Origin: Cordylochernes scorpioides
Lineage: Eukaryota; Arthropoda; Arachnida; Pseudoscorpiones; Chernetidae
Assembly: GCA_030710605.1 (NCBI GenBank)
Contig: CP092882.1
Span: 17,542,316-17,606,315 of the forward strand
DNA: 64,000 nucleotides
Direction of reading: 5' to 3'
Of this stretch, positions 325-58,702 are shown piece by piece. The translations under genes were made by a program, and so were the position numbers. The number at the start of each line of letters is the position of its first letter. The first letter of the stretch is position 1. Below the pieces are notes generated by a model that was not told the origin of the DNA, did not search any database, and worked only from the letters and a program-made list of their open reading frames with translations.

Positions 325-465
325 TGTTTAAGAGCCTGGAAACCTTTTTTGATAAAGTGACAAATCACAGTTAAGTGAGGGTTGAAAAATGTTTGTAGTT
401 CCTGTAAGCTGTTTATTTTTGGTGCTTACAATGTGGGCACCTTTTGATTACTTTACAATCCCCCA

Positions 466-597
466 TAAGGCAATAAGACCAAATAAATAAATAATGTGTA
501 ACAATGCTGTTACAGAAATGTTGCATGCTATTTTATTTATTTGAATTTGATCTTATTTCTGTTTTTTTAATCTATAAAACAAAAATTGTACCTAATC
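466..597. repeat. M1 palindromic element, degraded
   Basis: The AAGACCAAATAAATAAATA arm is followed by a decayed GTGTGTGACGTTTC-type centre and then the inverted arm, ending near AATTGTACCTAATC. Compare the nearly perfect M1 copy at 3787-3933. Confidence 0.65.
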
Positions 598-990
598 ATT
601 TACAAACCCCCCACTAAGAGAATTAAGAGCATAGAGGATTCAATTTTATTACCTATAGGTTTTCCATTGAGAACTAGATCCACGAGAGATTGTGATTGTT
701 TTAAACTGCAATTTAAACTATTATTTTCCAATACATGCGTTGTAATAATTTTTCAGGTGTATATATTCGCTAAATATCAAAATTTATTAGGAAAAAGTAT
801 ATTGTGCACTTGAACCTTGCTGACAACTTTCTATAATCTATCAGAAAGAAAAAAAACTTAACTGAATATTGCTTTATCATTTTTGGAATTTGGCAGTGAA
901 GGAAATGGAAGTTTGCAGTACTCAGATTGAGAGATAATCAATTGACCCTACTGGAGGAGAGATAAAATTTGGAGAATATGAAGAGGTAAA
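598..990. other. No gene seen
   Basis: AT-rich sequence with no convincing exon and no repeat I can pair inside the window. Confidence 0.5.
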
Positions 991-2718: not shown

Positions 2719-2948
2719 ATAATTTTACAAGTACATCATAGAAATAGCATCTTTTTTAAAAATGTTTACAGGGAGCTAAGTTGAGTTAACACTCCGTAGT
2801 AAAGTTGAGTTTTGTGCAAGAATTGGAGAAATGTGTTATTAAAACAACACTCATATGTGTGTGCCCCTCCTGGTTGCTCTATCCCTCTTCTTTCTTTCTT
2901 CTTTTGCCTGGTGATGGTAACAACGCTGTTACTGAAACATTTAATTTG

Positions 2949-3110
2949 ATAAGGCACAATTTGGATTATAGATTATAAACACAAGGTAATAATATAATCC
3001 AAATCCTCATCAATTTTATTGACTTCAATGGACTTAAGAAGTTATTCTTCTGGATTTGGTCTTATTACCTTGTATTTAATTTGGTACTTTTGTTTCTAAT
3101 CTACATCATA
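2949..3110. repeat. M1 element, partly palindromic
   Basis: Begins AAGGCACAATTTGGATTATAG and later runs through the GACTTCAATGGACTTAAGAAG head into GGATTTGGTCTTATTACC. The ribozyme-like centre is missing. Confidence 0.6.
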
Positions 3111-3724: not shown

Positions 3725-3786
3725 TAAAAGGTAAATATAGTTTACTTTTTTTTTAATTTCATTCCTTACCAACTATAATATAAACT

Positions 3787-3933
3787 CAAGGTAATAAGAC
3801 CAAATCCAAATAAATAAATAGTGTGTGACGTTTCGGTAACAACGCTGTTACCAAAACGTCACACACTATTTATTTATTTGGATTTGGTCTTATTACCTTG
3901 AGTTTATAATCTATAATCCAAATTGTGCCTTAT
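3787..3933 (+). repeat. M1 palindrome, near-perfect copy with target duplication
   Basis: About 60-bp arms (GGTAATAAGACCAAATCC and inverse) meet at GTAACAACGCTGTTAC. The tail TATAATCCAAATTGTGCCTT is present only on the right. A 14-bp direct repeat CTATAATATAAACT flanks the copy at 3773-3786 and 3934-3947. This length and the one-sided tail fit reverse-transcription-based insertion better than a DNA transposon. Confidence 0.85.
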
Positions 3934-3950
3934 CTATAATATAAACTTTT

Positions 3951-4183
3951 TACAAGAGAAGGAATCAACTGACATCATATTGAAGAAGGAACAAAAGTTA
4001 ACTGCGACGGGTTTCTTTTATTAATGCTGTAAATTCGGCAAGCTTTCAGACTTTGACGTCCTTCGACAGGCAACTTTTGTTGTTAAAAGTTGCCTGTTGA
4101 AGGACCTAAAAGTCCGAAAGAGCTTGCCAAATTTACAACTTTAATAAGGGAGACTCGTCGCTGTTGACTTTTGTTTCTTCTTC
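3951..4183 (-). repeat. Palindromic element F3 with target duplication
   Basis: Arms of about 95 bp meet at CAACTTTTGTTGTTAAAAGTTG. A single-copy tail (about 3951-3980) lies on the left only. The direct repeat AATATAAACTTTT (3938-3950 and 4184-4196) is 13 bp and overlaps the right target duplication of the preceding M1, so F3 came later. The centre contains CCTGTTGAAGGAC and TCCGAAAG strings like those at 29990 and 41330. Confidence 0.8.
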
Positions 4184-4292
4184 AATATAAACTTTTGGCC
4201 GTAATGTCTTAAATTGACTACACAGAATATGCTTTTCTCCTAGGTAAAAAAAGCCATTAAAGCAGTGTATAAAGTTGGCAATGATATGCTAA

Positions 4293-6580: not shown

Positions 6581-7732
6581 TGTACTACCTTTTATTGGGG
6601 CTTTCAGCCACTGGTCCATGAAGGTTGAAGCCTCATTGATTACCTTTTGTTAGTGAAGGCTGAGTTCCGTGTTGGGGAAAGTATGGAATTCCTTTCAGAA
6701 GGCTTGTGTTATTTTGGAAGCAAACATTTTTTATTTCTACTATCCCATTTTTTTAAAACCACTTGTGGCAACAAATTTACAAAATACCTTTACAGTGGAA
6801 CTACCTGCAGCTTATCAAATAACGAATGTGAACCACAACTAATCCTAAACAAGATACATGTAAATGGTGACATTGTGTAATGACAACATAAACGTTAATT
6901 CAACACTTTCGATAATTTGACTGACTTTTAAAATCAAATTTTGACATATTAGATAATTCTTGTTTAAATACAAATTTATTCCTGAAAATACAATACTTTG
7001 GCTCAGCGGCCATAGTTAGCAATATGTGCACTGTGCTTAAGTCTTAGAAGGCTTCGCAAAATCAACACCAACGATGGATGATTTAGGCCTAACTTTAGTG
7101 GCTACTATAACCAAGGTGAAGAATAGGTGTCTTAGAGTTTTTATTTTCAAATTTTATTTGCCACACCATTGCATTTATTCGCTTAAAGTAATATTTGTAA
7201 TTTTCCTTTGTCCACACACAAATGTATTAATGCAATTTTATCATCACGCTAAGGTAATCATTCAGAAAAAATAAATTAAATTAAAAAGTCCCAATACGGT
7301 ATCAAATTCACATTTTAATTATATTGCCACGTGGAAAATTAGGGAAGACAAAAACTTCAGGAGGAAACAAAATTTATTTCAGGGAAGGACAAACTATCCA
7401 AGGTAAACAAAAGATATGCCACGAGGGAAATTTACAGAGTCGCAAGATATAAAACATAAAAATGACCACTCTGTTAAATAAAAAATAATAAAATTAAGAA
7501 ATACTATGTTACAAAATATTTGATTATATCCTAGAAAAACATCCATGTTGTGATGAAATAATCTAATTTAACCGAAAGCTCTGATCCCTTGGGATGTTGA
7601 GTTGAAGAGGTTAGACTGTATATATTGTGTGCTGTGTATATAACCTCTTTAATTCACCACAACTTCAATTCAACCAGTGAAAAATCTGATATCTTGGAGT
7701 GTTAAAGAAGTTGGACTGTATATATTATTTAA
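6581..7732. other. No gene seen; pogo-like fragments
   Basis: A degraded copy of repeat R or a pogo-like end lies around 6890-7060. TTGAGTTGAAGAGGTTAGACTGTA and similar ends lie around 7600-7720. The 66- to 77-codon frames show no domain. Confidence 0.4.
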
Positions 7733-8168
7733 AAATGCTTATTTTGGATAATAAAGTTTAATTTTCCGATATTTCGTGTGGCAACTCGCTAAACTTCTTC
7801 GGGGAACAAGATTGTTTTGAGAAGCTCGCGTATCAATTCACGAGTACAACTGCTATAAAATATCTAAAACCTACAATTATCATGTTTATGAATATATAAA
7901 GAATAAATAAATATATACATTTAAAATATAAGAATTGAAAATTTATTTATTCTTTATATATTCATATTTTATATATTATTTTATCTTATATTATTAATTA
8001 TATTTATAAACATGATAATTGTAGGTTTTAGATATTTTACAGCAGTTGTACATACTCGTGAATTGATACGCGAGCATCTCAAAACAATCTTGTTCCCCGA
8101 AGAAGTTTGGCGAGTTGCCACACGAAATATCGGAAAATTAAACTTTATGATCCAAAATAAGCATTTTT
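7733..8168. repeat. Large foldback palindrome (about 200-bp arms)
   Basis: Reads outward from AATGCTTATTTTGGATAATAA to the inverse TTATGATCCAAAATAAGCATT, with highly similar arms. The innermost part is an AT-rich loop. The arms contain GAAGAAGTTTGGCGAGTTGCC and ACGAAATATCGG. I found no clear target duplication. Confidence 0.8.
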
Positions 8169-8210
8169 TAATAATTTATTATATGGATTGCTCTATTTTC
8201 AAACATATAT

Positions 8211-8625: not shown

Positions 8626-9059
8626 TATCTAATATATAGAAGCATAGGGCGCCTCTCCCGTCAAAATAAACGTCAAAACCTGATGCCATCTATTGACTGT
8701 CGCCGCAAACTAGCGGCCTCAGGTATATGCTATATATATAGGGATCTCCCATTAAAAATCCCATTAGTGGAACACTTGTAGTAGCCTGTTCTGGTAGATT
8801 AAACTGAGAAAACAGAGAGAGGCTCATTAATAATAAGTCTGATGGCCCTCTTTTTAACCTTTTTTTTTTTTTTCAGTAAGAGGAAGTAGAAAACTTTTTT
8901 TCCCTCTCTTAGGCGCGCGCTCACACAAAATCCTTTTAATTAATGTGAGGAGGGATTGTGTTTCCAGAGAGAGGACTTTGTACCAAAACAGGATTTCCTT
9001 TTTGTGTGCCCGTTTTTTTATTTCTAACTTCTCTTCAAACAGAAGCATGATGATGATGA

Positions 9060-9665
9060 GGCACAATTTGTATTATAGATTAGAACTACAAGGTAATAAG
9101 ACCAAATCCCTATAAATTGTTAGTGTGTGATTTTTCTGTAACAGCTTTGTTACTTATAAATGACTGTGGCGTATAATTATAAAGCTATACAACCAGTTTA
9201 ACCGCATAAGTTTCTTTTATTTATGAAAAATCATTTTTAATTTCAAAGAGAAATAATTTAATATTTCTAACTTTTGGATGACGTATGAAAAGGTTGAATA
9301 TATGAAGAGTGATGGTCTGGAGTGATGGTTTTTATTTTTCCATTCGCCATAACTCTTCATATTTCTCACCCTCCATACGTCATCCATTCATATATAGACC
9401 ATCACTCTTCATATATTCAACCTTTTCATACGTCATCCAAAAGTTAGAAATATTAAATTATTTCTCTTTGAAATTAAAAATGATTTTTCATAAATAAAAG
9501 AAACTTATGCGGTTAAACTGGTTGTATAGCTTTGTTACTATCATCAGACAAATTTATTGAATGTGTTACTCTTGTGTCTGATGATTTTAACAACTCTGTT
9601 AACTGAAACATGACACATTATTTATTTATTTGGATTTGGTCCTTTATTATATTGTAGAAACATAA
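9060..9665. repeat. M1 element interrupted by foldback F1
   Basis: The left part (9060-9154) runs from GGCACAATTTGTATTATAG to the GTAACAGCTTTGTTACT centre. The right part (9540-9665) resumes with ATCATCAGACAAA and ends in TTTGGTCCTTTATTATATTG. Confidence 0.75.
9155..9527 (-). repeat. Foldback element F1, inserted in M1
   Basis: Arms run from CAACCAGTTTAACCGCATAAG to CTTATGCGGTTAAACTGGTTG. A single-copy tail with GACTGTGGCGTATAATTATA is on the left only. AGCTTTGTTACT (12 bp) flanks it at 9143-9154 and 9528-9539. The arms match those of F2 at 52955-53473, but this copy lacks the tRNA-like head. Confidence 0.85.
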
Positions 9666-10091
9666 TGAGTAAGGAGTTTTTCAGTATGAAATCCCAATTC
9701 TTTTGATTAATTCTACACTAATTTTGAGAGTTTGTAGGGAATGTAAATTCTATATGCCAACTTTCTCTCTCTCTCTACAGTTAAAAACTTTTTTATAATT
9801 CCACATTTTTTCAAACCTCTCAACCAAATACATATATTTAACCGACTATAATTCAAATGGGAAAAAAAAAAGAGAAACTTTAATTCAACTACCATTGGAG
9901 GCAGAATTGTATCTAATTTATTTTTATTTCTCAAACCTTATATGTAAATATGTAACCATTGTTAACCAATGCCACATTGTTACTAATCTCCAGGCTGGTC
10001 ATCTACAGACCTTCCAGAATGGTTGGAAGTTTGTTCTACTATGTATCAAGTGAAACTCAACGAGTATCCCTAGTTTTTAAGCAAAATATTT

Positions 10092-10228
10092 AATAACTTT
10101 GTAATAAGACCAAATCCAAATAATTAAATAGTGTGTGACGTTTCGGTAACAGCGTTGTTACCATCTTCAGACAAAAGTACACTATTTAATTATTTGGATT
10201 TGGTCTTATTACCTTGTTTTATAATCTA
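10092..10228 (+). repeat. M1 palindrome, main part
   Basis: The arms AATAAGACCAAATCCAAATAA and inverse surround GTAACAGCGTTGTTACC and CTTCAGACAAAAGTAC. The tail TATAATCTA is cut by a Helitron and resumes as TAATCCAAATTGTACC at 11041. Confidence 0.85.
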
Positions 10229-11040
10229 CTAGCGGATGTACCCGGCTTCGCCCGTGTTTTACCCGAGTAAAGGTTTGTCTAACGAATCTCTCGATAAAGT
10301 GAACATTTTTTCCCGGTCCCTTGAAAAATACTCGATAAGTTGAATAAAATCAATATTAATCGGTACCCGAGTAAAGGTCTGTCTAACGAACATTTGTTAA
10401 AACAATTCTCTATAAACTTATAAAAAGAAATCGATATATTTTGATAATTTGAAACTGATAAAGTGATCATTTTTTCCTGGTCCCTGTGTGCCGTGTCATT
10501 CTGAATTTTGTCTTTCCTAATTTTCTACATTACAAAATCATCGTTTTATCTAGTGAACATTTTTTCCCGGTCCCTTGAAAAATACTCGATAAGGTTGAAT
10601 AAATTCATGGTCGTTTATGGAAGATGGACGAAGTTCCCGGAGGTCATCTTGGGCAAGCACCCGCGAGGCTTTTTTTCTTGTCTACTTGGTATAGCTGTGT
10701 CACCAACTCTGCCCTGATTGGTCGGTGGGTACTTGGACTGTCGGCCGGCGGCCGGGCGAATCCATTCTCTCACGGGGTGGGGCAGACCCAAGGTCATCAG
10801 GAGCAGCAAACCTAAGCCTATCTCCATCTCAATGGTGGCGCTGCTTGCGAGTTAAAGCTACAAATCTGCAAATAACTCTAAGGATATTAAAGATATTCAA
10901 GATATTATTTTTTGTAAACCTTTCCGGGGATATGCCTAATAATATCCCAAATTTTCACGGCGATTGGATGTATGGTTTTTGAATCCATAGAGGACACACA
11001 CACACACAGACAGACAGACATTTAATTTTATATATATATA
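10229..11040 (-). mobile_element. Non-autonomous Helitron, family H2, inside M1
   Basis: Minus-strand orientation: the CTAG end with its GC-rich subterminal segment is at 10229, and the TATATATAAAATTAAATG-type 5' end is at about 11040. The host reads ATCTA/TAATCC across the insertion with no duplication, as expected for Helitrons (A/T target). No replication protein is encoded. Confidence 0.85.
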
Positions 11041-11275
11041 TAATCCAAATTGTACCTTATCTATTTAATAACTATTATTTCTATCCCTTTTTTGTCACTT
11101 TTGTAAGCTACAATTCTATTCTCCTATCCACACACGTTTTTTTTTTTGTTTGTTTCTTTATAGATTAAATAACTAGAGAGTATATTTATATGAGAAAGAG
11201 GGATTACTAGCGATAAGAAAGTCTGCCAGACCAAGCTCTATCAAGGAAGTGACCAATAAATGAAATGATTGCTCA

Positions 11276-11340: not shown

Positions 11341-11387
11341 GCAATAATAAAATGAAAAGGAACTCATCTCCTAAACCTGTAACATTA

Positions 11388-13168
11388 TTTAAAGGATACC
11401 TAGTTTCAGAACTAAAGTTTCTTATAGACAGAGGTGTCCTCTCTATTACCACAGACCTGCTAATTGGTAAAAAATGGGAATGGTATTGTAAACTGTCCTT
11501 TATAGAGAGGTTCCCTTAGCAAGTGTGCCCTCTCATAGAGGTTGATTATTTAAAGGATACCTAGTTTCAGAACTAAAGGTTCTTATAGAGAGAGGTGTCC
11601 TCTCCATTACCACAGAGAGCTGCTAATTGGTAAAAAATGGGAACTAGGGTACTGTAAACTGTCCTTTATAGAGAGGTTCCCTTAGCAAGTGTGCCCTCTC
11701 ATAGAGGTTGATTATTTAAAGGATACCTAGTTACAGAACTAAAGTTTCTTATATAGAGAGGTGTCCTCTCCATTACCACAGAGAGCTGCTAATTGGTAAA
11801 AAATGGGAATGGTGTTGTAAACTGTCCTTTATAGAGAGGTTCCCTTAGCAAGTGTGCCCTCTCATAGAGGTTGATTATTTAAAGGATACCTAGTTTCAGA
11901 ACTAAAGTTTCTTATAGACAGAGGTGTCCTCTCCATTACCACAGAGCTGCTAATTGGTAAAAAATGGGAATTCTATGGTGTTGTAAACTGTCCTTTATAG
12001 AGAGGTTCCCTTAGCAAGTGTGCCCTCTCATAGAGGTTGATTATTTAAAGGATACCTAGTTTCAGAACTAAAGTTTCTTATATAGAGAGGTGTCCTCTCC
12101 ATTACCACAGAGCTGCTAATTGGTAAAAAATGGGAATGGTGTTGTAAACTGTCCTATATAGAGAGGTTCCCTTAGCAAGTGTGCCCTCTCATAGAGTTTG
12201 ATTATTTAAAGGATACCTAGTTTCAGAACTAAAGTTTCTTATATAGAGAGGTGTCCTCTCCATTACCACAGAGCTGCTAATTGGTAAAAAATGGGAATGG
12301 TGTTGTAAACTGTCCTATATAGAGAGGTTCCCTTAGCAAGTGTGCCCTCTCATAGAGTTTGATTATTTAAAGGATACCTAGTTTCAGAACTAAAGTTTCT
12401 TATATAGAGAGGTGTCCTCTCCATTACCACAGAGCTGCTAATTGGTAAAAAATGGGAATGGTGTTGTAAACTGTCCTATATAGAGAGGTTCCCTTAGCAA
12501 GTGTGCCCTCTCATAGAGTTTGATTATTTAAAGGATACCTAGTTTCAGAACTAAAGTTTCTTATAGACAGAGGTGTCCTCTCCATTACCACAGAGCTGCT
12601 AATTGGTAAAAAATGGGAATGGTGTTGTAAACTGTCCTTTATAGAGAGGTTCCCTTAGCAAGTGTGCCCTCTCATAGAGGTTGATTATTTAAAGGATACC
12701 TATTTGCAGAACTAAATTTTCTTATAGAGAGAGGTGTCTTCTCCATTACCACAGAGCTGCTAATTGGTTAAAAAATGGGAATTCTATGGTGCTGTAAACT
12801 GTCCTTTATAGAGAGGTTCCCTTAGCAAGTGTGCCCTCTCATAGAGGTTGATTATTTAAAGGATACCTAGTTGTAGAACTAAAGTTTCTTATAGACAGAG
12901 GTGTCCTCTCCATTACCACAGAGCTACTAATTGGTAAAAAATGGGAATGGTGTTGTAAACTGTCCTTTATAGAGAGGTTCCCTTAGCAAGTGTGCCCTCT
13001 CATAGAGGTTAATTATTTAAAGGATACCTAGTTGCAGAACTTATAGAGAGAGGTGTCCTCTCCATTACCACAGACCTGCTAATTGGTTAAAAATTGGAAT
13101 TCTATGGTGTTGTAAACTGTCCTTTATAGAGAGGTTCCCTTAGCAATTGTGTCCTCTCATAGAGGTTG
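11388..13168. repeat. Satellite of about 11 x 163-bp pogo-A-derived units
   Basis: AAAGGATACCTAGTTTCAGAA recurs about every 163 bp (near 11388, 11555, 11719, 11880, 12046, 12207, 12369, 12530, 12694, 12857 and 13018). Each unit holds the pogo-A-like GAGAGGTGTCCTCTCC and AACTGTCCTTTATAGAGAGG segments. Some neighbouring units share private variants such as CTATATAGAGAGG, pointing to unequal exchange. Confidence 0.9.
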
Positions 13169-13680
13169 TATTAGAGAAGCACAGTTTACATCAAATAAGT
13201 GCAAAAAAAGGGTTTGATAAAAATTACAGAGGTACTAAAGAACTGGATTTCAAAGCCTTCCATCTAAAAGAAGAGATTTTAAAAATAAAATGAGACCATT
13301 GTAAAGAGAATCTAGGTGAGGAAATTACTTAAAGGAATTATTGTGATATTTAGTATTTTTTAACCCCTAAATACTTCCCCCCCCAAATGTCTCAGAATCT
13401 TTTCCTGATGACCCCTATAAGATTTCAATTGTTTTGCTGCCTTTGTTAAATCTCACTTCATTCTTGTCTCCCTTTTTTTCACCCACTTTTTTTCCTTCCC
13501 CTTTCTTTTGAAAGCAGATTATTCCTTGAAAGCTCCCAAAACATGAGGTTTTTTTTTGTCTCTCTTGCCTTGAAACTACAAAATAAGTATATCTTTTTCT
13601 CTTTCTCTCACTATATGGTTTTTAAAGAGAAATTCACAATAGTTAACTCATCTGTGGATCATAAGATGATATAAAGTATG
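13169..13680. other. No gene seen
   Basis: Unique-looking AT-rich DNA with T- and C-runs. Confidence 0.5.
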
Positions 13681-13880
13681 ATAAAGCACAATTTAGATTT
13701 TAGATTATAATAAAAGAAAATAAGATCTAATCCCAAATAATTTAATAGTGTGTGACGTTTCGGCAACAGCATTGTCACCATTATCAGACAAAAGAATAAA
13801 ATCCATATATAATCCATAAAAATCCAGCATTGCAGAAACGTCACACACTCTTAAATTATTTGGATTAGGTCTTATTTTCC
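13681..13880. repeat. M1 palindromic element
   Basis: Arms with AAATAATTTAATAGTGTGTG and inverse. The centre GGCAACAGCATTGTCACC is followed by ATTATCAGACAAAAG. Unlike other copies, the loop carries about 40 bp of extra sequence. Confidence 0.75.
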
Positions 13881-13908
13881 TGTATTAAGATATAAAGTAG
13901 TTAGGTGT

Positions 13909-15774: not shown

Positions 15775-15898
15775 ATAAAAAGGAGACGTACCTGAATTGT
15801 GAAAGAAAAAAAATTATATTTTCTTAATATTTTGAGGGATTGCTCTCTCACTATCATTTTATTGCACACAAAAAAAAAACTGAAAGTAATTTACAAAT
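15775..15898 (+). repeat. G-family monomer, diverged
   Basis: AGGAGACGTACCTGAATTGTG then a poly(A) tract and GGGATTGCTCTCTCACTATC, parallel to 5455-5590. Confidence 0.55.
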
Positions 15899-16425
15899 TA
15901 TAAGGCACAATTTGGATTATTCTATATACAGCTACGAGCATCATTCCTCATCTCCTAATCAATCAGTCAGTTTTCATCTCTGTCACCGTTTGCTTTTTTT
16001 TGGAATGGCGGCCTCCTATTGGTTGGCTACGGTCACGCCACCTTTGCCCCCCCCCCCCCCCCCACTCGCTATTTCGTCTTTGTAACTATTGTGTTGGAGC
16101 GGGTCGCTCCCTAAATAAATGCATATATTAGATAATAACCAAATGGAATCCTCTCTTTCTTTTTCCCAGTAAGAGACGCCTACGGAAGCCAACAGTACAT
16201 AGACAGATAAAGCACATAGGCTATAGTTATTAACTAACATATGCAATTATTTAAGGCGCCAATTTATAATTGTAACAAATAGTATTTGAATCAAAACATT
16301 CAATCGGGTAAAACACGGGCGTTGCCCGGGTCATTCGGCTAGTAGACTATAAACACAAGGTAAATAAGACAAAATAAATAAATAGTGCCTTGTGTTCATA
16401 ATCTATAATCCAAATTGTGTCTTAT
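15899..16425. repeat. M1 copy split by a Helitron
   Basis: Left part GGCACAATTTGGATTA ends at the Helitron. The right part resumes TAGACTATAAACACAAGG at 16343 and closes with ATAATCCAAATTGTGTC near 16420. Confidence 0.75.
15921..16342 (+). mobile_element. Non-autonomous Helitron H1 inside M1
   Basis: TCTATATACAGC start (a preceding T may belong to the element) and CGGGCGTTGCCCG hairpin before CTAG at 16339-16342. The host junction is the same M1 nucleotide step used at 10228/11041 and 17822/18240. Confidence 0.9.
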
Positions 16426-16429
16426 AATT

Positions 16430-16565
16430 TTTATAGACTTCATTGGACCTAAGAAGTTATTCTTCGATTCAGTACTTTTGTCTGAAGATGGTAACAACGC
16501 TGTTACAGAAACGTCACACACTATTTATTTATTTGGATTTGGTCTTATTACCCTGTGTTTATAAT
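16430..16565 (+). repeat. M1 monomer (not palindromic)
   Basis: Shows the unit in simple form: head GACTTCATTGGACCTAAGAAG, then TTTTGTCTGAAGATGGTAAC, AACGCTGTTACAGAAACG and the TTTGGATTTGGTCTTATTACC tail. Useful for orienting the family. Confidence 0.75.
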
Positions 16566-16871
16566 TTACAAATTATTGTATAGATCACATGGGTCGTCTT
16601 TGAACTCAAAGTTGTCAAGTTTGTGTAGGGATCCCATTTGAAACCTATTGTAGATAAGAAAACAAAAGGGATGGCTGATACCCCCACTTAGTAGATCAAG
16701 GTTCCAGAGTGTCAGCGGTAGGTCATTCAGCTGGGAGGTGGTGGTGAGTCACTGATCCTACCTTCTAGTTCAGGGAGAGTCAGTAGAATGGACTGTTGTT
16801 TGATCCCCTGGATTACTATCTCCTTCTGTTCAATCAATTTATCTTTTTTGTAACATTTCCTATATTTAGGA

Positions 16872-17222: not shown

Positions 17223-17282
17223 AACATGTGTTTTAATATTTAATTCAATTAAAACAAGGTTAACCCCATAATATATAAACAA

Positions 17283-17495
17283 AAAAATAAAATAGAATAA
17301 GACCTAATCCAAATAATTTATTAGTGTGTGACGTTTTGGCAACAACATTGTCACCATCATCAGACAAAAGAATAAGAGGTTTTTATAAATTTCATTTTAT
17401 TCTTTTGTCTGATGATGGTGACAATGTTGTTGCCGAAACATCACACACTAAATTATTTGGATTAGGTCTTATTTTGTTTTATTATAATCTATTGT
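17283..17495. repeat. M1 palindromic element
   Basis: Arms AAGACCTAATCCAAATAATT and inverse. The right half reads CTGATGATGGTGACAATG then TTGTTGCCGAAACATC, so it holds the exact hammerhead-type CTGATGA and GAAAC strings. Confidence 0.8.
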
Positions 17496-17514
17496 TAAAA
17501 TTTTACACAAATAA

Positions 17515-17822
17515 ATTTTTACTGGCAATGCGTTTCTTTTAAATATCATCAAATATTATCTCTACAGACCTTACTGCAATGATATGAGTTATTGAATGAG
17601 AGGGCTTGGCTCATCAGTAGTGAACCCTCTCAGCTGTTTCGCCAAATTAATCTCTAGACCGCTCTACTATTGTATTGGATTGGTTTGGAGTATACCCTGT
17701 ATTTTCTATGGAAGGCAGCTTTAGGGGTGTTTAGTGAACTATGGACATAAGCTTATAGGTCTGTATTTGTGTAAAATTTAAACGATAGATGGCAATTAAA
17801 TTTAATTTACTATTATAATCTA
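17515..17822 (-). repeat. D element, half copy with tail-like flank
   Basis: Shares TTTTACTGGCAATGCGTTTC through TTTCGCCAAATTAATCTC with the palindrome at 33544. It then diverges before a GATAGATGGCAATTAAATTT tail near 17785-17805. Helices: GAGAGGG (17598-17604) with CCCTCTC (17625-17631), TTGGC (17606-17610) with GCCAA (17641-17645). Confidence 0.7.
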
Positions 17823-18239
17823 CTAGCCGAATGACCCGGGCAACGCCCGTGTTTTACCCGATTGAATGTTTTGATTCAAATACTATTTGTTACAATTATA
17901 AATTTGGCACCTTATATAAATGCATGTGTTAGTTAATAACTATAGCCTATGTGCTTTATCTGTCTATGTACTGTTGGCTTCCGTAGGCGTCTCTTACTGG
18001 GAAAAAGAAAGAGAGGATTCCATATGGTTATTATCTAATATATGCATTTATTTAGGGAGCGACCCGCTCCAACACAATAGTTACAAAGATGAAATAGCGA
18101 GTGGGGGGGGCAAAGGTGGCGTGATCGTAGCCGACCAATAGGAGGGCGCCATTCCAAAAAAAAAAAGCAAATGGTGACAGAGATGAAAACTGACTGATTG
18201 ATTAGGAGATGAGGAATGACGCTCGTAACTGTATATAGA
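17823..18239 (-). mobile_element. Non-autonomous Helitron H1 inside an M1 end
   Basis: CTAG with CGGGCAACGCCCG hairpin on the left, GTATATAGA on the right. Host reads TAATCTA then TAGTCCAAATTGTGC: the M1 tail again. About 95% similar by eye to 15921-16342. Confidence 0.9.
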
Positions 18240-18599
18240 ATAGTCCAAATTGTGCTTTATCAAACAAAATAACTTATGCAAAATTAGAGAAAGAAAGAAA
18301 ATACAGTGTTGCCGACTGATTACCTAACTATGAAGAAAAAAATCAAAGAATAATTAATTATTTTACATAAATAAATACAAAGCATGTTACATTTTTAATA
18401 AAGTTTTTTTTTAAAGTCTCCTTTATGAAAGTCTCCAATTTGGATTGTAGATTAGAAATTCAAGGTATCCCAAATGCAGTCAAACTTAATCTTTTATCAG
18501 AATTTTCAGTGAAATTATAGATGTGGTTAAATCAAAGAAAGTAAGTAGCCTTATTGAGAGATTTGAAAATTTGGTTGAATTAAAGTAGGTTTTGAATTA

Positions 18600-18786
18600 C
18601 ATATAAGAAAATAAGCTCTAATCCAAATAAATTAATAGTGTATGATGTTTCGGTAACAGCATTGTTACCATCATTTCTTTTGTCTGATGATGGTAAAACA
18701 ACGCTGTTACCAAAAGTCACACACTATTAATTTTATTTGGATTAGGTCTTATTTTCTTGTAGCTATAATCTATAATCCAAATTGTG
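18600..18786 (+). repeat. M1 palindrome with 15-bp target duplication
   Basis: GTAGGTTTTGAATTA at 18585-18599 and 18787-18801. Arms AAATAAATTAATAGTGT and inverse; one-sided tail TATAATCCAAATTG on the right. Confidence 0.85.
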
Positions 18787-18944
18787 GTAGGTTTTGAATT
18801 ATTGTTGGTTGAATTAAAGAGAGGTTATACTGTTGCACTTTTTTTTTTGTCTGGAATGATAACAATTCTGTTACTGAAATGTCACGAGCAATTTATCTAC
18901 AGTGTAACCAGTTTAATATGACACTTGCAATAATTCAACCAAGT

Positions 18945-19883: not shown

Positions 19884-19895
19884 ATGAAGAAAATA

Positions 19896-20051
19896 TAATA
19901 AAGCACAATTTGGATTGATTATAGAATATAGCTATAAGAAAATAAGACCTAATCCAAATAAATTAATAGTGTGTGACATTTCAGTAACAGCGCGTTGTCA
20001 CTGAAACGTCACACACTTTATTTGGATTAGGTCTTATTTTCTTGTAGCTAT
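19896..20051 (-). repeat. M1 palindrome with 12-bp target duplication
   Basis: ATGAAGAAAATA at 19884-19895 and 20052-20063. The single-copy tail AAGCACAATTTGGATT is on the left, so this copy is in minus orientation. Confidence 0.8.
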
Positions 20052-20159
20052 ATGAAGAAAATAGTTTCAATCTACACTCTCTTTGGCCTTTAATCATTTT
20101 ACATTGAATCATACCCAAATTCAACACTTTACCATAATTTAACAGTTTTTTTTCAAATT

Positions 20160-20847: not shown

Positions 20848-21196
20848 TGAAAAACCTCCCTGTAAAGACCAACACCTAGCTGCAGAAACAAAAGGAAACG
20901 TGACCAAATCCATATAAATAAATAAATGTGTGACGTTTCAGTAATAACGTTGTTACCGAAATGTCACACACTATTTATTAATATGAATTGGGTCTTGTGT
21001 TAACTTTTGTTTCTAATCTATAATCCAAATTGTACCTAATCACCTAGTTGCAGAGCCAAAGTGACCTTAGGGGAGAATTGTCCTCTTACTGGAGAGTTAC
21101 CATTTAGTAAAAATGGCAATTTTGGTAATGGAAACTGCCCTTTATAAAGTGGTATCTTCTAGCCAAAGTATCCTTTCATGGAAGTTCCACTGTACT
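20848..21196. repeat. pogo-A MITE split by M1
   Basis: AAAACCTCCCTGTAAAGACC starts the host element. It resumes at about 21041 with CACCTAGTTGCAGAGCC, which repeats the CACCTAGCTGCAGAAAC before the insert: a diverged target duplication. Confidence 0.75.
20890..21040 (+). repeat. M1 palindrome nested in pogo-A
   Basis: GTGTGACGTTTCAGTAATAACG and GTTACCGAAATGTCACAC centre; tail TATAATCCAAATTGTACC on the right. Confidence 0.8.
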
Positions 21197-21964: not shown

Positions 21965-22090
21965 TTAATTCAATTTACCATAGACTTCAATGGACCTAAG
22001 AAGTTATTCTTCCTATGATGGTAACAATACCGTTAACGAAACATCACACACTATTTATATATTTGGATTAGGTCTTCTTGTTATACAAAA
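21965..22090 (+). repeat. M1 monomer
   Basis: GACTTCAATGGACCTAAGAAG, CTATGATGGTAACAATACCG, TTAACGAAACATCACACAC and TTTGGATTAGGTCTTCTTG in order; not palindromic. Confidence 0.7.
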
Positions 22091-23045: not shown

Positions 23046-23222
23046 TTGTTATTATTTTTACAAATAAATTGGTTTGAGATTTTTTTTTGTTGAAAATTTG
23101 AAGATTTCTCCCCACCCCTCCTTATACTTGGGTTAAATACGGAGGATTCTTTAAAAACAGGAAGGTAGAAGGTAATACATTCCTTTTGAGTTCTTGTTGA
23201 AGTTTTTTTTTTTTTCTTGTTA

Positions 23223-23325
23223 AGGCACAATTTGGATTATAGATTATAAACACTAGGTAATAAGACCAAATAAAAAGTGTGTGACATTTTGGTAACAGCG
23301 TTGTTACCATCTTCAGACAAAAGTA
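23223..23325 (-). repeat. M1 monomer, minus
   Basis: AAGGCACAATTTGGATTATAG, GTGTGTGACATTTTGGTAAC, GTTACCATCTTCAGACAAAAG: 5'-truncated single unit. Confidence 0.75.
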
Positions 23326-24389
23326 CTGAATGAGATTTTTTACCACAGCATTTTTAAATAGTTACTGTTACCAAGACTTGATATGCTATATGTTTCACTG
23401 TATATATAGCTATGGGCCAATTTGGACTAAGGTTTGAATCCAAATGACTGTAAAAAAAGACAACAGCATAACCTTGATCTGCATCCTAGATCTTGGCTTG
23501 TGTTCCAATTAAGAAATTGAGAGCTCCTTTTAGGAACAGTGCCATCCTCCCATGGGATGGTAGTTGACAACAAGGTCTTTTCAATTGTCACAACGTCCAT
23601 CTTGGGGCTGTCGCCATTCTTGGAGGACCTTCTAAGTGCTGGGAGGGCAAATTCCAAAGCCAATTACATATGTCGCTAACATAAGGAAACAAAATTTTAT
23701 TATATCATATATATGTTGTACTTTTTACTTTATTGTACAAGTTTCTTTCTTTTCTTCCAAATTGAAACCTAAGAGTGATCTCTCTTTGAATGTTCACCAA
23801 ATCAATTTACTTCCCAACTTTGAAAAATGCCCCGTTAAAATATAAAAAACTGTAAGCAGACATATTTGAGTAGACACAACCCAGCCATGACAAATTTGAA
23901 GAGGCACTTCTTATTGTAAAACAGCACACTCTTTTAATTTCATTTTTTAAAAAAAATTGTTCTATGGAAAGTTTTCACTGCATTATAAATAGATCCTGTT
24001 TCTTTAGTTTTACTACATGTAGAAACAGTGATATATGATAGTGGATATTGCTGCTGCTGTAATGAAGATGCATGGAGACATCTGAGACTCTTCTTTGGAC
24101 ACGACAACAACATGTAGGAATCAGAATAGATATAAATGGATTTATTTTTAAGTTTACAATTTTAAAACAAAATTTAAAGCGAGAAAGTAAAAAGTCTTTT
24201 AAAGTAAAACTTTTCACTAAAGCTTAGAACTAGCTGTAATATTTGAGAGAGAGATCCATACACTAAGATAAAAAATCTACTTTAGAAAACCTGGTAGTGT
24301 AATAGCCACAATGTAAATATTGTGTCAGCCTGCCCAGACCTGCTGTGTGTGCTGCAGGATGATTGCTGCAGCAAGCCACTGCTAGCAAG
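23326..24389. other. Upstream region of aPKC; no promoter identified
   Basis: AT-rich. A 78-codon minus frame (23427-23663) has no domain I recognise. Just before the aPKC start, GCTGTGTGTGCTGCAG at about 24343-24358 could be a splice acceptor for a 5' untranslated exon, or simply part of the 5' UTR. Confidence 0.4.
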
Positions 24390-30240: not shown

Positions 30241-30583
30241 TCATTTTTGATAGACTTCAATGGGCCTAAGAAGTTATTCTTCCTATGAGCTGAAGAAAAT
30301 GAATTCCAAAGTAAATATCAATGTTGATGCCATCACTTGAAGATGCTAATGAAATGTTATTTTTCAGTAAAAGGTAAATATATAAATCTCTGTTAATGTG
30401 ATATTGATGATATATTTGGACATTAATGATGGCTAGTGAAGATAGTTTTGATCTGTATAACAATGTTTTATAAACCTCCGATGTTTTGACAAGATTGACT
30501 TCACCCATCTTTTTGTTGTACTAGTACCATTCTTCTAGAAACCACTGTAAAAATTGCTTAAGAATCAGTTTTTTTATTTTTAA

Positions 30584-32264: not shown

Positions 32265-32701
32265 TACAGTAAAACCCTCTATTATGAACTCCATTGGGAC
32301 TGAACCTGTGGTTCACTATAGCCATAGTTAACTGTATTATCACAAAGCAATAACGCGTTATCTATACATTTAAAAGCACGAATGTTTCTTTTATACATAA
32401 TACAAACTTCTACTGCCCTTACTGCGATGAAAGCGTATATAAGCAGAATGATCCAATACAGTATTAGAGCTCTGAGAAGCGGTCTGGTGGATTAAATTGG
32501 CGAAACCGCTGGGAGGGTTCACCACTGATGAGCCAAGCCCTCCCAATATATTTTTTCATCGCAGTAAGAGCAGTAGAAGTTTGTATTATGCATAAAAGAA
32601 ACATTCGTACTTTTAAATCCTTTCATTTTAACTCTATTATAAGCTTCATTATAAGGAAAAGTTTGCAATAACCCCGATTTGTTTTAGCAAGGTTTTACTG
32701 T
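32265..32701. repeat. pogo/Tigger-like element hosting a D palindrome
   Basis: TACAGTAAAACCCTCTATTATG on the left and AGCAAGGTTTTACTGTAA on the right are inverted ends. The middle (32366-32622) is a D element. Confidence 0.7.
32366..32622. repeat. D palindrome
   Basis: Arms AAGCACGAATGTTTCTTTTAT and inverse enclose CTACTGCCCTTACTGCGATG. One inner half keeps TTGGC (32497-32501), GGGAGGG (32511-32517), GCCAA (32532-32536) and CCCTCCC (32538-32544). Confidence 0.75.
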
Positions 32702-33243: not shown

Positions 33244-33543
33244 AAGTGTTGTGTTCTGATTGCAGTCAGTGAACACACACACAGCTCCATATTTTCCCCC
33301 CTATGAAAACACTAAAATGACTTAACCTTCAATCACTGACATGAAACAAAATTTTGTTGTTACAATCTGGATTGTATCCTCATTATCTAAGGCAGATTTA
33401 GGTTGTTTCTTTCAAATGTTATTGTCAAATTTTGAACTTTTTAGATACCTTCTATTTTTATATTGTGTTTTTTTACATATTGGTTGCTTCAAATCTCAGA
33501 CACCATAAATTCAACTCTCTTCAGCACAACACCTTATATCTAT

Positions 33544-33861
33544 AAATTTACTGGCAATGCGTTTCTTTTAAATATTTTCTCTACAGACCTTACTGCAATG
33601 ATATGAGTTATTGAATGAGAGGGCTTGGCTCATCAGTAGTGAACCCTCTCAGTGGTTTCGCCAAATTAATCTCTAGACCGCTCGGCGAAACCGCTGAGAG
33701 GGTTCACTACTGATGAGCCAAGCCCTCTCATTCAATAACTCATATCATTGCAGTAAGGTCTGTAGAGATAATATTTGATGATATTTAAAAGAAACGCATT
33801 GCCAGTAAATTTATTTGTGTAAAAAAAAAATTTAATGATAGATGGCAATTAAATTTAATTT
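33544..33861 (+). repeat. D palindrome with tail and target duplication
   Basis: About 130-bp arms (ACTGGCAATGCGTTTC and inverse). A tail of about 50 bp ending GGCAATTAAATTTAATTT lies on the right only. A 13-bp duplication ACCTTATATCTAT is at 33531-33543 and 33862-33874. Confidence 0.9.
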
Positions 33862-33874
33862 ACCTTATATCTAT

Positions 33875-34140: not shown

Positions 34141-34252
34141 GATAAAGCACAATTTGGATTATAGATTATAATACAAGAAAATACCTATTCCAAATAATTC
34201 ATGTTATGTCTGATGATGGTGACAATGCTGTTGCCAAAACGTCACACACTGA
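34141..34252. repeat. M1 fragment
   Basis: AAAGCACAATTTGGATTATAG, then GTCTGATGATGGTGACAATG and TTGCCAAAACGTCACACAC. Confidence 0.7.
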
Positions 34253-36659: not shown

Positions 36660-37175
36660 CCTCCGTTCTCTACAGCCAGGATCGATGGACACTCTTTCCA
36701 ATTAAAAAAAAATTGCTTCAATAAATTTTTGCAAAAATCCAACCCCACCAGTGAGTGCAAGTCAGGTCTCTAGCACACTTGTGAGTGCAAAAGTCAAACT
36801 ACATTCCACATGTGTAGATATAGATGGGAAAATTTCCGGGAGGAAATTGATCCATAGAAGCACCCTATGCTTCTATGTATAGACATGTGATACACTTACA
36901 GTAAAACAAGTTGCTAACCTTACCCAGCATGATAAAGCACAATTTGGATTATAGATTATAAACACAAGGTAATTAAGACCAAATAAATAGTGTGTGATGT
37001 TTCTGTAACAGCGTTGTTACCATCTTCAGATTTTCCACTTTTGTCTGAAGAAGGTAAAATGCTGTTACCGAAACGCCACACACTATTTATTTATTTGGTC
37101 TTATTACCTTGTGTTCACTACCCAGTATGGTTAACATAACCTGTATCTCACATGTACTAGGTATATAAAAAAAAT
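36660..37175 (+). repeat. SINE S1, diverged, split by M1
   Basis: AAATCCAACCCCACCAGTGAG and CACATGTGTAGATATAG mark the left part. CCCAGTATGGTTAACATAACC and ACATGTACTAGG mark the rest after the M1 insert. A Helitron-like TGCTTCTATG fragment sits in it near 36840-36885. Confidence 0.65.
36932..37118 (-). repeat. M1 palindrome inside SINE S1
   Basis: TACCCAGCATG (36921-36931) and TACCCAGTATG (37119-37129) flank it. Tail AAGCACAATTTGGATTATAG on the left only. The right half has GTCTGAAGAAGGTAAAATGC and GTTACCGAAACGCC. Confidence 0.8.
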
Positions 37176-37889: not shown

Positions 37890-38262
37890 TCGTTGGTGTA
37901 TGAGTAGGTAACACCCTCGATTCCCGACAGTCATGAACCGGGATTGAATCCCGCGTTAACATTTTGTTTAATGTGTGAATAACTTTCACATATTATTTAT
38001 TGTTGCAAATATCATAAACTAGTTTGAGTCAAAAGGCGATCCATTGACTAAGATTATATAAAAGGGCGTACCTGGATCTGTAAAGAAAAAAAAAATATTA
38101 ATAATTTTTTCTCTAAAATTGATAGAGGGAGCAATCTCTCGAAATATTTTGAGAAAAAAAAAATTTTTTTTTTCTTTACAGATCCAGGTACGCCCTTTTA
38201 TATAATCATAAACTAGGTTGTTCTTTTTGAGCGGTACCTAATAAAGTGATTTTGGAACTGGA
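37890..38262 (+). repeat. SINE S2 split by palindrome G
   Basis: Same head as 28080. The body runs to ATCATAAACTAG, and resumes at 38217 with GTTGTTCTTTTTGAGC and AATAAAGTGATTTT. Confidence 0.75.
38023..38204 (-). repeat. Palindrome G with target duplication
   Basis: ATCATAAACTAG (12 bp) at 38011-38022 and 38205-38216. A single-copy tail (about 38023-38052) on the left, then TATAAAAGGGCGTACCTGG and its inverse CCAGGTACGCCCTTTTATA. Confidence 0.85.
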
Positions 38263-48649: not shown

Positions 48650-49045
48650 TCTCTTCTTCTTTCTTATCTCCACTCAATCATATTAGGGTGTCAAGCTTGT
48701 AAAGCTTGAGACTTTTGATGGTGTCTGTTGACAACCATCATGATTGGGTGAAGTAGAATGTGCCTGCCTTTGTCATTAAGACTGGGAGCACTACTCAGTG
48801 GCAGGCCGACTTAGCTCTAAAATAAATGGCCGCCTCTGACATGAGAAACAAACGCCATGTGCAGCCGCTCCTAACATGGAGTACAAACGCTGCTCATCCT
48901 GTATCCCTAGATTAGGAGCCTTTACAGGGTACTATCAGCCGGGCCAGCTGAGCCCAGGTTTTTTACGAGCTTGTTACTGCTCCCCCTCCTCCTTTTTCAT
49001 CCGGGCTTGGGACCAGAAAAGGCGGACTATGCGGACAAAGACTAA
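48650..49045 (-). mobile_element. Element C inserted in right arm
   Basis: GTCCAGCT at 48642-48649 and 49046-49053. The undisturbed site (TGTCCAGCTAAATGTCC in inverse) is visible in the left arm near 41920-41940. Confidence 0.85.
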
Positions 49046-49310
49046 GTCCAGCTAAATGTTAACAGTCGTATTCCTACCTACATCAGATGTATCATCAACA
49101 GACATCTAAATACTCCAATGAATTCTGCTCCTCTCTCTACTCCATTCTAACTGGCATTGGGTCCTGATGGTATGGGAATGGTATACTTTATCGGGTGGTA
49201 GATTCATTTACTATTGAATACAGTAAATGGATGTTTTGAAAGAATGATATGATGAACCATGCCTTCTTTCAAATTTTATTCATTGCAGTACAAGGGATTG
49301 AGATTTAAAT

Positions 49311-49493
49311 TACAATTAAACCTGTCTATAGCGCCCCCTCTTTAAATTGCGCCTCCCTCTCTATAGCACCTGATTTTAAATACGTAGTACGATGCAATTT
49401 ACATTAAAAGTGACCTATCTATAGCACCCCCTCTCTCTATAGCACCCTATTTTGGTGAGTCCCAAGAGAGGGCGCTATAGACAGGTTTAACTG
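49311..49493. repeat. pogo-B MITE
   Basis: TACAATTAAACCTGTCTATAG to CTATAGACAGGTTTAACTG; counterpart of 41595-41685. Confidence 0.75.
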
Positions 49494-52941: not shown

Positions 52942-53134
52942 TATTTTAATTTGTTATAAAGAGGACTGCGGCGTATGATTATAAACAACACTTAAAGTTT
53001 CACCGCATAAGTTTCTTTTCTGTGAAAAATCAATATTTATTTCAAAGAGAAATATTTACTATTTCTAACTTTTTTGGATGAAGTATGAAAGGGTGAAAAT
53101 ATGAAGAGTAATGGCGAACGGAAAAATAAAAGTG

Positions 53135-53206
53135 TCCAGGGGCGGGAATTGAACCCACAACCTTCCGCTTACTGGGCAGATGCCATGTCCACTAGGCTAC
53201 CCTGGA
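53135..53206 (-). tRNA. tRNA-Thr(AGT)-like head of the F2 SINE
   Basis: On the minus strand it folds as a full cloverleaf: TCCAGGG/CCCTGGA acceptor, GCC/GGC D-stem, TCTGC/GCGGA anticodon stem with loop CCAGTAA, and GTGGG/CCCGC T-stem with loop TTCAATT. The loop has C rather than T before the anticodon, and it is inside a retroposon, so it is most likely not a working tRNA. Confidence 0.6.
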
Positions 53207-53261
53207 CGTATTTTTCCGTTCGTAAATAATACTTAAAGTAACTTATAATACATTATATTTA

Positions 53262-53327
53262 TAGCCTAGTGGACATGGCATCTGCCCGGTAAGCGGAAGG
53301 TTGTGGGTTCGATTCCCGCCCCTGGAC
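53262..53327 (+). tRNA. tRNA-like head, second arm, acceptor missing
   Basis: TAGCCTAGTGGACATGG (box A) and GGTTCGATTCC (box B) are both consensus-like. The 5' acceptor strand is absent; the anticodon position reads GGT. A pseudogene head of the facing SINE copy. Confidence 0.6.
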
Positions 53328-53564
53328 ACTTTTATTTTTCCGTTCGCCATTACTCTTCATATTTTCACCCTTTCATACTTCATCCAAAAAAGTTAGAAAT
53401 AGTAAATATTTCTCTTTGAAATAAATATTGATTTTTCACAGAAAAGAAACTTATGCGGTGAAACTTTAAGTGTTATTTTAATTTGTATTTCTTTTAAAAA
53501 AAAAGAGGTAATTTTTAGAAATTTCTTTAGGAAAATTTTAATTTTCCAAAATAATATAGTATTT

Positions 53565-58623: not shown

Positions 58624-58702
58624 AGCCTGGTTAATTGTTATTGCGTAAGAAGAAAGCGCCGATTTTTGAAAGAAAGGTTGAGTACGATTATATATTTTTA
58701 AA

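What the first reader, a model, noticed from the sequence alone, without database searches (positions are those of the whole stretch)
3773..4196. Shared snap-back retroposon architecture in at least five unrelated families
Elements M1 (3787, 18600, 19896, 36932), F1/F2 (9155, 52955), F3 (3951), D (33544) and G (38023) have unrelated sequences but one design: near-perfect palindrome, a 20-50 bp tail present on one side only, and direct target duplications of 11-15 bp. Each palindrome arm stops where the tail begins. Cut-and-paste MITEs have symmetric ends and short fixed duplications, so this suggests reverse transcription starting at the tail, with the unit then copied back on itself or an inverted dimer RNA. 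At 3773-4196 two families lie end to end, one inserted in the other's target duplication. I do not know a named element class with exactly this form; partial inverted copies are known for Penelope-like elements and LINE twin priming.
Basis: partly seen in the sequence, partly recalled or inferred. Interest (0 to 1): 0.88.

Follow-up and report, generated by a model that had tools for sequence, protein, structure and literature searches.

The report
Palindromic retroposons made by two-ended priming
Several families of short jumping elements in this eukaryotic DNA look like mirror images, probably because reverse transcription started from both cut ends of the target at two spots about 30 bases apart on the RNA, as expected of the little-understood Penelope-like retroelements.

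Summary
The architecture is real. Nineteen elements in the window (12 of family M1; F1, F2, F3, D, D2, P32341, G) have head-to-head arms, a tail on one side, and flanking duplications of 10-16 bp. Flank matching gives 16 of 19 scores of 10 or more, against 0 of 342 mismatched pairings. The two arms start a median 31 nt apart (21-49).

Snap-back and inverted-dimer copying are not supported: centres differ between copies of one family, and in 9 of 22 elements the tail-less arm holds element sequence that the tailed arm lacks. One M1 copy shows a tandem template (15902-16562).

Best reading: non-autonomous retroposons, probably moved by a Penelope-like element (PLE), made when both target 3' ends prime on the RNA at two adjacent internal sites. 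A purified PLE cuts and extends both strands and starts at two sites flanking the "tail" (PMC11167929); an Adineta Penelope has inverted pLTRs and a 31-bp tail (PMC3846280). M1 has a hammerhead-like core, F1 a tRNA-Thr head. F1, F2, F3, D, D2 and P32341 share AAAAGAAAC, so the families are not wholly unrelated. No PLE gene was found and no genome was available: the enzyme is inferred.

The parts
3773..3947 (+). M1 element 3787-3933 with its 14-bp target duplications (3773-3786, 3934-3947); tail at right; centre inside the stem-II hairpin
3938..4196 (-). F3 element 3951-4183 with 13-bp duplications, the left one overlapping M1's right duplication; 31-nt tail at left
452..611 (+). M1 element 465-598, duplications of 13 bp with 1 mismatch
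2939..3083 (-). M1 element 2949-3073, duplications of 10 bp; tail-less arm runs from M1 into the U1 module
9041..9667 (-). M1 element 9053-9655 (F2 nested inside), duplications of 12 bp with 2 mismatches
9144..9539 (-). F2 element 9155-9528 nested in M1, 11-bp duplications, 31-nt tail at left; tail-less arm longer than tailed arm
10087..11073 (+). M1 element 10099-11061 interrupted by a Helitron-like insert (about 10229-11039), duplications of 12 bp; tail-less arm reaches 44 nt further 5'
13668..13899 (-). M1 element 13679-13888, 11-bp duplications; tailed arm longer, with filler at the junction
15888..16576 (-). M1 element 15902-16562 (Helitron-like insert about 15918-16343), 14-bp duplications; tail-less arm reads through M1, U1 and an upstream M1 tail: template RNA was tandem or circular
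17277..18272 (+). M1 element 17291-18261 carrying D2 and a Helitron-like insert in its tail; duplications of 14 and 11 bp (indel)
17480..17822 (+). D2 element 17492-17810 nested in the M1 tail, 12-bp duplications; long tail-less arm, short tailed arm
18585..18801 (+). M1 element 18600-18786, 15-bp duplications
19884..20063 (-). M1 element 19896-20051, 12-bp duplications
20873..21054 (+). M1 element 20887-21040, 14-bp duplications with 1 mismatch
36921..37129 (-). M1 element 36932-37118, 11-bp duplications with 1 mismatch
34141..34252 (-). M1 copy with a non-overlapping inversion (antisense from about 67 to 118, then sense from about 71 to 0, counted from the 3' end): the ordinary twin-priming form; no clear duplication
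32328..32640 (-). P32341, D-related element 32341-32627, 13-bp duplications with 1 mismatch, 27-nt tail at left, 9 extra bases at the other end
33531..33874 (+). D element 33544-33861, 13-bp duplications, 49-nt tail
38011..38220 (-). G element 38027-38204, 16-bp duplications with 1 mismatch, 28-nt tail at left
52942..53486 (-). F1 element 52955-53473, 13-bp duplications, 33-nt tail at left
53132..53207 (-). tRNA-Thr (AGT)-like 5' head of F1 in the tailed arm (second, 5'-shortened copy 53262-53319 + in the other arm)
23221..23344 (-). linear, non-palindromic M1 copy

Best explanation
These are short non-autonomous retroposons whose palindromic form arises anew at each insertion by two-ended target-primed reverse transcription. 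An element RNA (tandem or circular for at least one M1 copy) is held by a reverse transcriptase-endonuclease, probably of a Penelope-like element. The enzyme makes a staggered cut of about 10-16 bp in AT-rich DNA. One target 3' end primes at the distal start site on the RNA and gives the tailed arm; the other primes about 31 nt upstream, often helped by a few bases of microhomology, and gives the tail-less arm. Both cDNAs run towards the RNA 5' end, stop at different places and are joined there, giving head-to-head arms. Fill-in of the staggered cut gives the target duplication. Shown here: arms, tails, duplications, start-site offset, variable centres, a tandem template for one copy. Inferred: the enzyme class, the order of steps, and whether one or two RNA molecules serve as template.
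For: Nineteen elements with 10-16 bp duplications and one-sided tails; duplications about 22% GC against 35% for the window. Offset between arm starts: 21,25,27,27,28,29,29,29,31,31,32,32,33,33,35,36,38,41,49, median 31. Tails of 10101, 15900 and 17287 were joined across inserts and are off by a few nt (the 21 is 15900); the 25 belongs to a copy whose tail ends about 8 nt short. The tail-less arm continues by complementarity into the target duplication by 1 or more bases in 11 of 19, by 2 or more in 9, by 5-8 in 4. Centre test: of 22 elements 15 have 15 or more unpaired central bases; 9 match the tail-less side (M1 2899, 3599, 10101, 15900; F2; D; D2; P32341; G; two of these, 10101 and 15900, also match the other side more weakly), 3 the tailed side only (464, 13681, 34142), 1 is ambiguous (F1), 2 match neither (9056, 17287). 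Own arms are closer than re-paired arms (mean 0.151; 1 of 10000 re-pairings as low), while same-side arms are not closer between copies than opposite-side arms (0.228 vs 0.220). 15902-16562 reads M1-U1-M1 tail in one arm. Published biochemistry: the Anolis PLE protein cuts and extends both strands, starts at two adjacent internal RNA sites with the tail between them, prefers AT-rich DNA, and its hammerhead cut lies 85-92 nt upstream of a start site (my arithmetic from +26 and +111-118; PMC11167929, section 3 read whole). M1 has a hammerhead-like core whose presumed cleavage site lies 75 nt upstream of the 3' start (my count). An Adineta Penelope has an inverted pLTR 37 bp shorter than the direct ones and a 31-bp tail; TSDs of 8-10 bp are given for three inserts (PMC3846280, passages and Discussion).
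Against: No PLE reverse transcriptase or GIY-YIG domain was found in the window: Pfam scan of 45 of 51 ORFs of 85 aa or more (the other six are antisense to the kinase or Copia frames); shorter or broken frames were not scanned. No genome was available to look elsewhere. The M1 hammerhead is not reported by Rfam (whole window, 16400-16600 at lax threshold), has an extra U between the CUGANGA core and stem II, and the same pattern is absent from D, F1, F2, F3 and G. Tail length is 49 in D but 27 in D2, so the second start site is not fixed in that family. In only 2 of 13 M1 copies is the own partner the closest arm for both arms; arms are short and old. Microhomology is absent in 8 of 19, and 8 of 19 have 1-9 extra bases at the tail-less end. 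The elements were picked for having a one-sided tail, so the absence of two-tailed or tail-less forms is not a test.
Confidence: 0.67

Rival explanations
1. Ordinary LINE twin priming on SINE-like RNAs: a LINE enzyme primes at the RNA 3' end, and the second target end primes internally by microhomology on the same RNA; no Penelope-like element is involved.
For: M1 34142 has the plain non-overlapping inversion; microhomology at the tail-less end in 11 of 19; L1 5' inversions show such microhomology and L1 TSDs peak at 14-16 bp (PMC2912911, passages); F1 has a tRNA head as SINEs do.
Against: Second starts cluster 21-49 nt (median 31) from the first in all 19 elements instead of spreading; arms overlap widely; the 3' ends of M1, F1, F2, F3 and G as printed are not A-tails or simple repeats; PMC2912911 heads a section with 5' inversion being frequent for L1 but rare for Alu and SVA.
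Confidence: 0.2
2. Snap-back: one cDNA is made from the tail and then copied back on itself.
For: Head-to-head arms; self-priming was proposed for Penelope palindromes (PMC3846280 Discussion); the centres of M1 3773, 19896 and 20886 have 0-4 unpaired bases and lie in the self-complementary stem II, where a cDNA could fold back.
Against: In 9 of 22 elements the tail-less arm extends into element sequence absent from the tailed arm, which a copy of the tailed arm cannot contain. It does not explain the offset of about 31 nt or the microhomology with the target.
Confidence: 0.06
3. Inherited palindrome: the template RNA is an inverted dimer, copied as such.
For: Many copies of M1 share the palindromic form.
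Against: Centres range widely within M1 and differ between F1 and F2 and between D and D2; linear copies exist; no side-specific clustering of arms.
Confidence: 0.03
4. Cut-and-paste MITEs or foldback elements with worn ends.
For: Inverted arms; a palindrome without end duplication, 7720-8179, occurs nearby.
Against: Asymmetric ends in the 19 (chosen for it), duplications varying from 10 to 16 bp, tRNA head, tandem template, one arm longer than the other.
Confidence: 0.03

Closest known systems
Penelope-like elements, inverted pLTR with tail (Adineta vaga Penelope; Anolis Poseidon PAc)
   Same: Head-to-head terminal units, a tail of 31 (30-40) bp on one side, palindromes at the junction, variable TSDs, AT-rich targets, two RNA start sites flanking the tail, hammerhead upstream (PMC3846280, PMC11167929).
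   Different: No coding capacity seen and only 125-519 bp here; the whole element consists of the two arms; several sequence families including a tRNA-headed one; TSDs 10-16 rather than 8-10 bp.
Animal non-LTR retrozymes (type I hammerhead, circRNA)
   Same: M1 unit about 163 nt (my count), 31-32% GC, tandem template in one copy, TSDs longer than 4 bp, CUGANGA/GAAA core; PLEs are the proposed mobilisers of retrozymes (PMC7229834 section 13, PMC7761336 passages).
   Different: The M1 hammerhead has an extra base at stem II and hardly any stem III, is not reported by Rfam, and M1 copies are palindromes; no M1 tandem array was listed.
LINE twin priming (5' inversion)
   Same: Second target end primes on the RNA with microhomology; inverted 5' part; TSDs of similar length (PMC2912911 passages).
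   Different: Here the second start lies in a zone about 31 nt from the first, so the arms overlap over much of their length.
tRNA-derived SINEs
   Same: F1: tRNA-Thr-like head, body, TSD.
   Different: Tail and two-ended architecture are those of PLE ends; a LINE partner was not looked for (no library).

Membership tests
Penelope-like element ends (pLTR type) | Tail of 30-40 nt present on one of two inverted terminal units | tested here: met
   19 of 19 have a one-sided tail, but they were chosen for it; what is tested is its length: median 31, range 21-49
Penelope-like element ends (pLTR type) | Variable TSDs at AT-rich sites | tested here: met
   10-16 bp; about 22% GC against 35% for the window
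Penelope-like element ends (pLTR type) | Reverse transcriptase with GIY-YIG endonuclease, own or in trans | tested here: inconclusive
   None in 45 of 51 ORFs of 85 aa or more scanned in the window; rest of the genome not held
Penelope-like element ends (pLTR type) | Minimal type I hammerhead near the start sites | tested here: inconclusive
   Core-like pattern in M1 (8 of 9 window sites, all one family; mean 0.75 sites per window in 40 order-1 simulations, maximum 3); stem II keeps 124 WC and 14 GU of 161 pairs over 23 sites, 6 A-C and 17 other; no Rfam match; pattern absent from D, F1, F2, F3, G
Animal retrozyme | Tandem units of 150-450 bp | tested here: inconclusive
   One copy, 15902-16562, whose arm spans M1-U1-M1 tail, unit about 163 nt; but no tandem DNA array of M1 listed
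Animal retrozyme | Self-cleaving type I hammerhead | not testable with these tools
   Needs an in vitro cleavage assay; sequence has an extra U after CUGANGA
Animal retrozyme | Abundant circular RNA | not testable with these tools
   No transcriptome held
tRNA-derived SINE (F1 only) | Pol III tRNA-like head | tested here: met
   Rfam tRNA 53.7 bits and ARAGORN tRNA-Thr
tRNA-derived SINE (F1 only) | 3' end shared with a partner LINE | not tested
   No LINE library or genome available
MITE (cut-and-paste) | Identical inverted ends with one fixed short TSD | tested here: not met
   Asymmetric ends, TSD 10-16

The most novel reading that the evidence does not exclude
A guild of otherwise different small RNAs (a retrozyme-like circle, a tRNA-Thr SINE, and families sharing an AAAAGAAAC 3' motif) parasitises a Penelope-like enzyme, and the palindromes are the normal product of obligatory priming by both target ends at two RNA start sites. 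This would make inverted pLTRs of PLEs a product of double target priming rather than of self-priming.
Probability: 0.45. Interest if true: 0.78.

Novelty: new variant of a known kind. Interest (0 to 1): 0.62.

Why it matters
How Penelope-like elements insert is unsolved. Their inverted, palindromic ends had been put down to self-priming (PMC3846280), and an in vitro study found two start sites and cutting of both strands but left the later steps open (PMC11167929). Short non-coding elements that keep both junctions, both start sites and the cDNA join within 125-519 bp are natural records of single events. They argue for priming from both target ends and give a test that any genome with such elements can repeat. 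A tRNA-headed SINE using a PLE would also widen the set of enzymes known to move SINEs; I saw none described in the titles and abstract beginnings listed (15 of 44, 9 of 9 and 7 of 7 papers shown). Long near-perfect hairpins scattered through a genome are also potential sources of double-stranded RNA (general knowledge).

Tried and rejected
No genome is held for the window. Collection scans for exact pattern matches gave nothing: M1 tail in viral contigs and genome contigs, the D 5' region in both, the F1/F2 3' motif and the M1 stem II region in viral contigs. Rfam at a lax threshold gave nine sub-threshold matches for the D hairpin, four of the first four rows microRNA-like, and nothing for M1 16400-16600. 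A full hammerhead in D (CGAAAC before CTGATGAG) was considered and dropped: the order is wrong and there is no room for stems I and III. Degenerate hammerhead look-alikes in F3 and G were seen by eye and not counted. The single-strand fold of the M1 core favours stem II plus a different 5' hairpin (z -1.8), which neither proves nor excludes a dimeric hammerhead. Tail comparisons: of 21 pairs, M1-F1 0 of 500 shuffles as good, M1-F2 3, M1-G 3, F1-F2 0; the other 17 gave 27 to 404, so a common tail for all families is not shown. The arm test is weaker than hoped: 2 of 13 copies have mutually closest arms. Rows left out: one search gave 36 M1-like clusters; one search used 20 regions (19 copies; 16469 belongs to 15900), one search used 13 copies, another the 12 with duplications, and those 12 plus 3599, 30150 and 34142. 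3599 and 30150 are palindromic with a tail but without a duplication that I could find; linear or fragmentary copies were not used.

Papers: PMC11167929 section 3 read whole; PMC3846280 passages and Discussion; PMC7229834 one section and one passage; PMC7761336, PMC6155905, PMC8490949, PMC3899998 and PMC2912911 passages only; the rest search listings. Lunse 2017 and Cervera 2014 were not held and are known to me only as cited in those passages.

Full report
What is there. The window is eukaryotic: a 600-aa atypical protein kinase C-like reading frame (PB1, C1, kinase domains), a Copia element and many repeats, with no genome held for it. A self-comparison gave 25 self-centred palindrome rows, several of them short or overlapping. 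Un-nesting later insertions and searching for relatives gave ten more. Three M1 tails are split by Helitron-like inserts at what reads by eye as one and the same TCTA^TAATCC site, and one M1 tail also holds D2. In all, 19 elements have duplications of 10-16 bp: 12 exact, 5 with 1 mismatch, 1 with 2, 1 with an indel (coordinates checked, which showed that I had D2 two bases off; it is 17492-17810). Own flanks match with scores 7-15; flanks of different elements never exceed 9 in 342 pairings. For F2-in-M1 and D2-in-M1 the target stretch is found uninterrupted in other M1 copies, so these duplications were made at insertion.

Two start sites. I call the arm that ends in the tail T and the other N. 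Measured from the last base before the duplication, N starts a median 31 nt inside T in the 19 elements (range 21-49). M1 15900 (21) lost a few tail bases at the join across its insert, and M1 18600 (25) has a tail about 8 nt shorter. D (49) and D2 (27) differ, so the site is not rigid. At the N end the element often continues by complementarity into the target duplication: 8, 5, 5 and 5 bases in M1 3773, F3, F2 and M1 17287, 2 or more in 9 of 19, none in 8. This is what a target 3' end annealing to the RNA would leave.

Why not snap-back or an inverted dimer. If N were copied from T, N could not contain element sequence that T lacks. Of 22 elements examined, 15 have 15 or more unpaired bases at the centre. 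In 9 of these the extra sequence continues the N side: M1 2899, 3599, 10101, 15900, F2, D, D2, P32341, G (10101 and 15900 also match the other side, more weakly, because stem II is self-complementary). In 3 it continues the T side only (464, 13681, 34142), 1 is ambiguous (F1), and 2 match nothing (9056, 17287). So in those 9 both arms were read from RNA independently. The centre also differs between copies: near stem II in M1 3773, 19896 and 20886, further 5' in 17287 and 10101, at the tRNA in F1 and inside the body in F2. An inherited palindrome would also make same-side arms of different copies more alike; they are not (0.228 against 0.220), while arms of one copy are closer (0.151; 1 of 10000 random re-pairings as low). 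Against this stands that only 2 of 13 copies have mutually closest arms. M1 34142 shows the ordinary non-overlapping inversion known as twin priming.

The template. M1 15902-16562, after leaving out its Helitron-like insert, reads in its N arm antisense M1, antisense U1 module, and an antisense M1 tail. The RNA was therefore tandem or circular, with a unit of about 163 nt (my count), and a tail was internal in it. M1 contains CTGANGA, one extra base, a 7-bp stem II, GAAA, and CGTC with a self-complementary ACGT. The pattern (with GAAA or AAAA allowed) occurs at 9 sites in the window, 8 of them in M1, that is in one family; simulated windows hold 0.75 on average and at most 3. Over 23 aligned sites stem II keeps 124 Watson-Crick and 14 G-U pairs, with 6 A-C and 17 other mismatches. 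Rfam does not report it. I call it hammerhead-like. F1 has a tRNA-Thr-like head in both arms, the second one shortened.

How unrelated are the families? F1 and F2 are one family. AAAAGAAAC occurs 14 times in the window on both strands, 10 of them in the arms of F1, F2, F3, D, D2 and P32341, upstream of the tail. M1 and F1 tails align better than all of 500 shuffles, M1-F2 and M1-G better than 497 of 500 (21 pairs tested). This suggests a shared recognition region, as between SINEs and their partner, but not one tail for all.

Mechanism and enzyme. The simplest account is two-ended target-primed reverse transcription: both 3' ends of a staggered cut prime on element RNA, one at the distal and one at a site about 31 nt upstream; the cDNAs run to the RNA 5' end or stop early and are then joined. 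A purified Penelope-like protein from Anolis does the needed parts in vitro: it cuts and extends both strands, prefers AT-rich DNA, and starts at two adjacent sites inside the RNA, the sequence between them being the genomic tail (PMC11167929). In Adineta, Penelope inserts carry inverted pLTRs; the example described has a 31-bp tail, an inverted copy shorter by 37 bp and a 9-bp TSD, others 8 and 10 bp, and palindromes at the junction are called consistent (PMC3846280). That paper inferred self-priming; the present elements argue for priming from both target ends. Whether others have proposed this I cannot say: the 15 papers shown by each (of 131; of 2,569) name no such proposal in title or abstract beginning, and most subscription journals are not held. 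The enzyme is inferred. No PLE domain was found in 45 of 51 ORFs of 85 aa or more, and LINE twin priming with a preferred second site remains the main rival.

Verdict. The elements are best called a new variant of a known kind: non-autonomous, PLE-type palindromic retroposons. Interest lies in what they say about how PLEs insert, and in a tRNA-headed family of this form.

Noticed in passing
15918-16343, 17823-18240, 10229-11039: Three Helitron-like inserts (ending CTAG after a GC-rich hairpin in two of them) sit at the same TCTA^TAATCC position of three different M1 tails, which suggests a site preference; read by eye, class name recalled.
   Followed up: partly
3014-3050, 16428-16465, 21975-22012, 30245-30282: U1 module (ATAGACTTCAATGGACCTAAGAAGTTATTCTTC) joins M1 at different points and follows an M1 tail at 30245; it may be part of the tandem unit or a captured RNA (which also listed one weak match at 5599).
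   Followed up: partly
33600-33760, 32480-32560, 1707-1795, 54890-54991: D family 5' region holds two crossing complementary pairs (TTGGC/GCCAA and GAGAGGG/CCCTCTC), a possible pseudoknot at the RNA 5' end; by eye.
   Followed up: no
7720-8179: 460-bp palindrome without end duplication, probably a different kind of element.
   Followed up: no
48655-50716: Inverted repeat of about 2 kb with arms of some 370 bp, 73% alike.
   Followed up: no
11384-13173: Tandem array of 11 units of 161 bp, 94% matches, with GGTGTCCTC motifs like dispersed repeats elsewhere.
   Followed up: no
51434-52581: 71-bp minisatellite, 16 copies.
   Followed up: no
24363-26165: Atypical protein kinase C-like gene with PB1, C1 and kinase domains in one 600-aa reading frame.
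   Followed up: no
58682-62790: Copia-type LTR element with gag, integrase and RVT_2 domains split over several frames.
   Followed up: no
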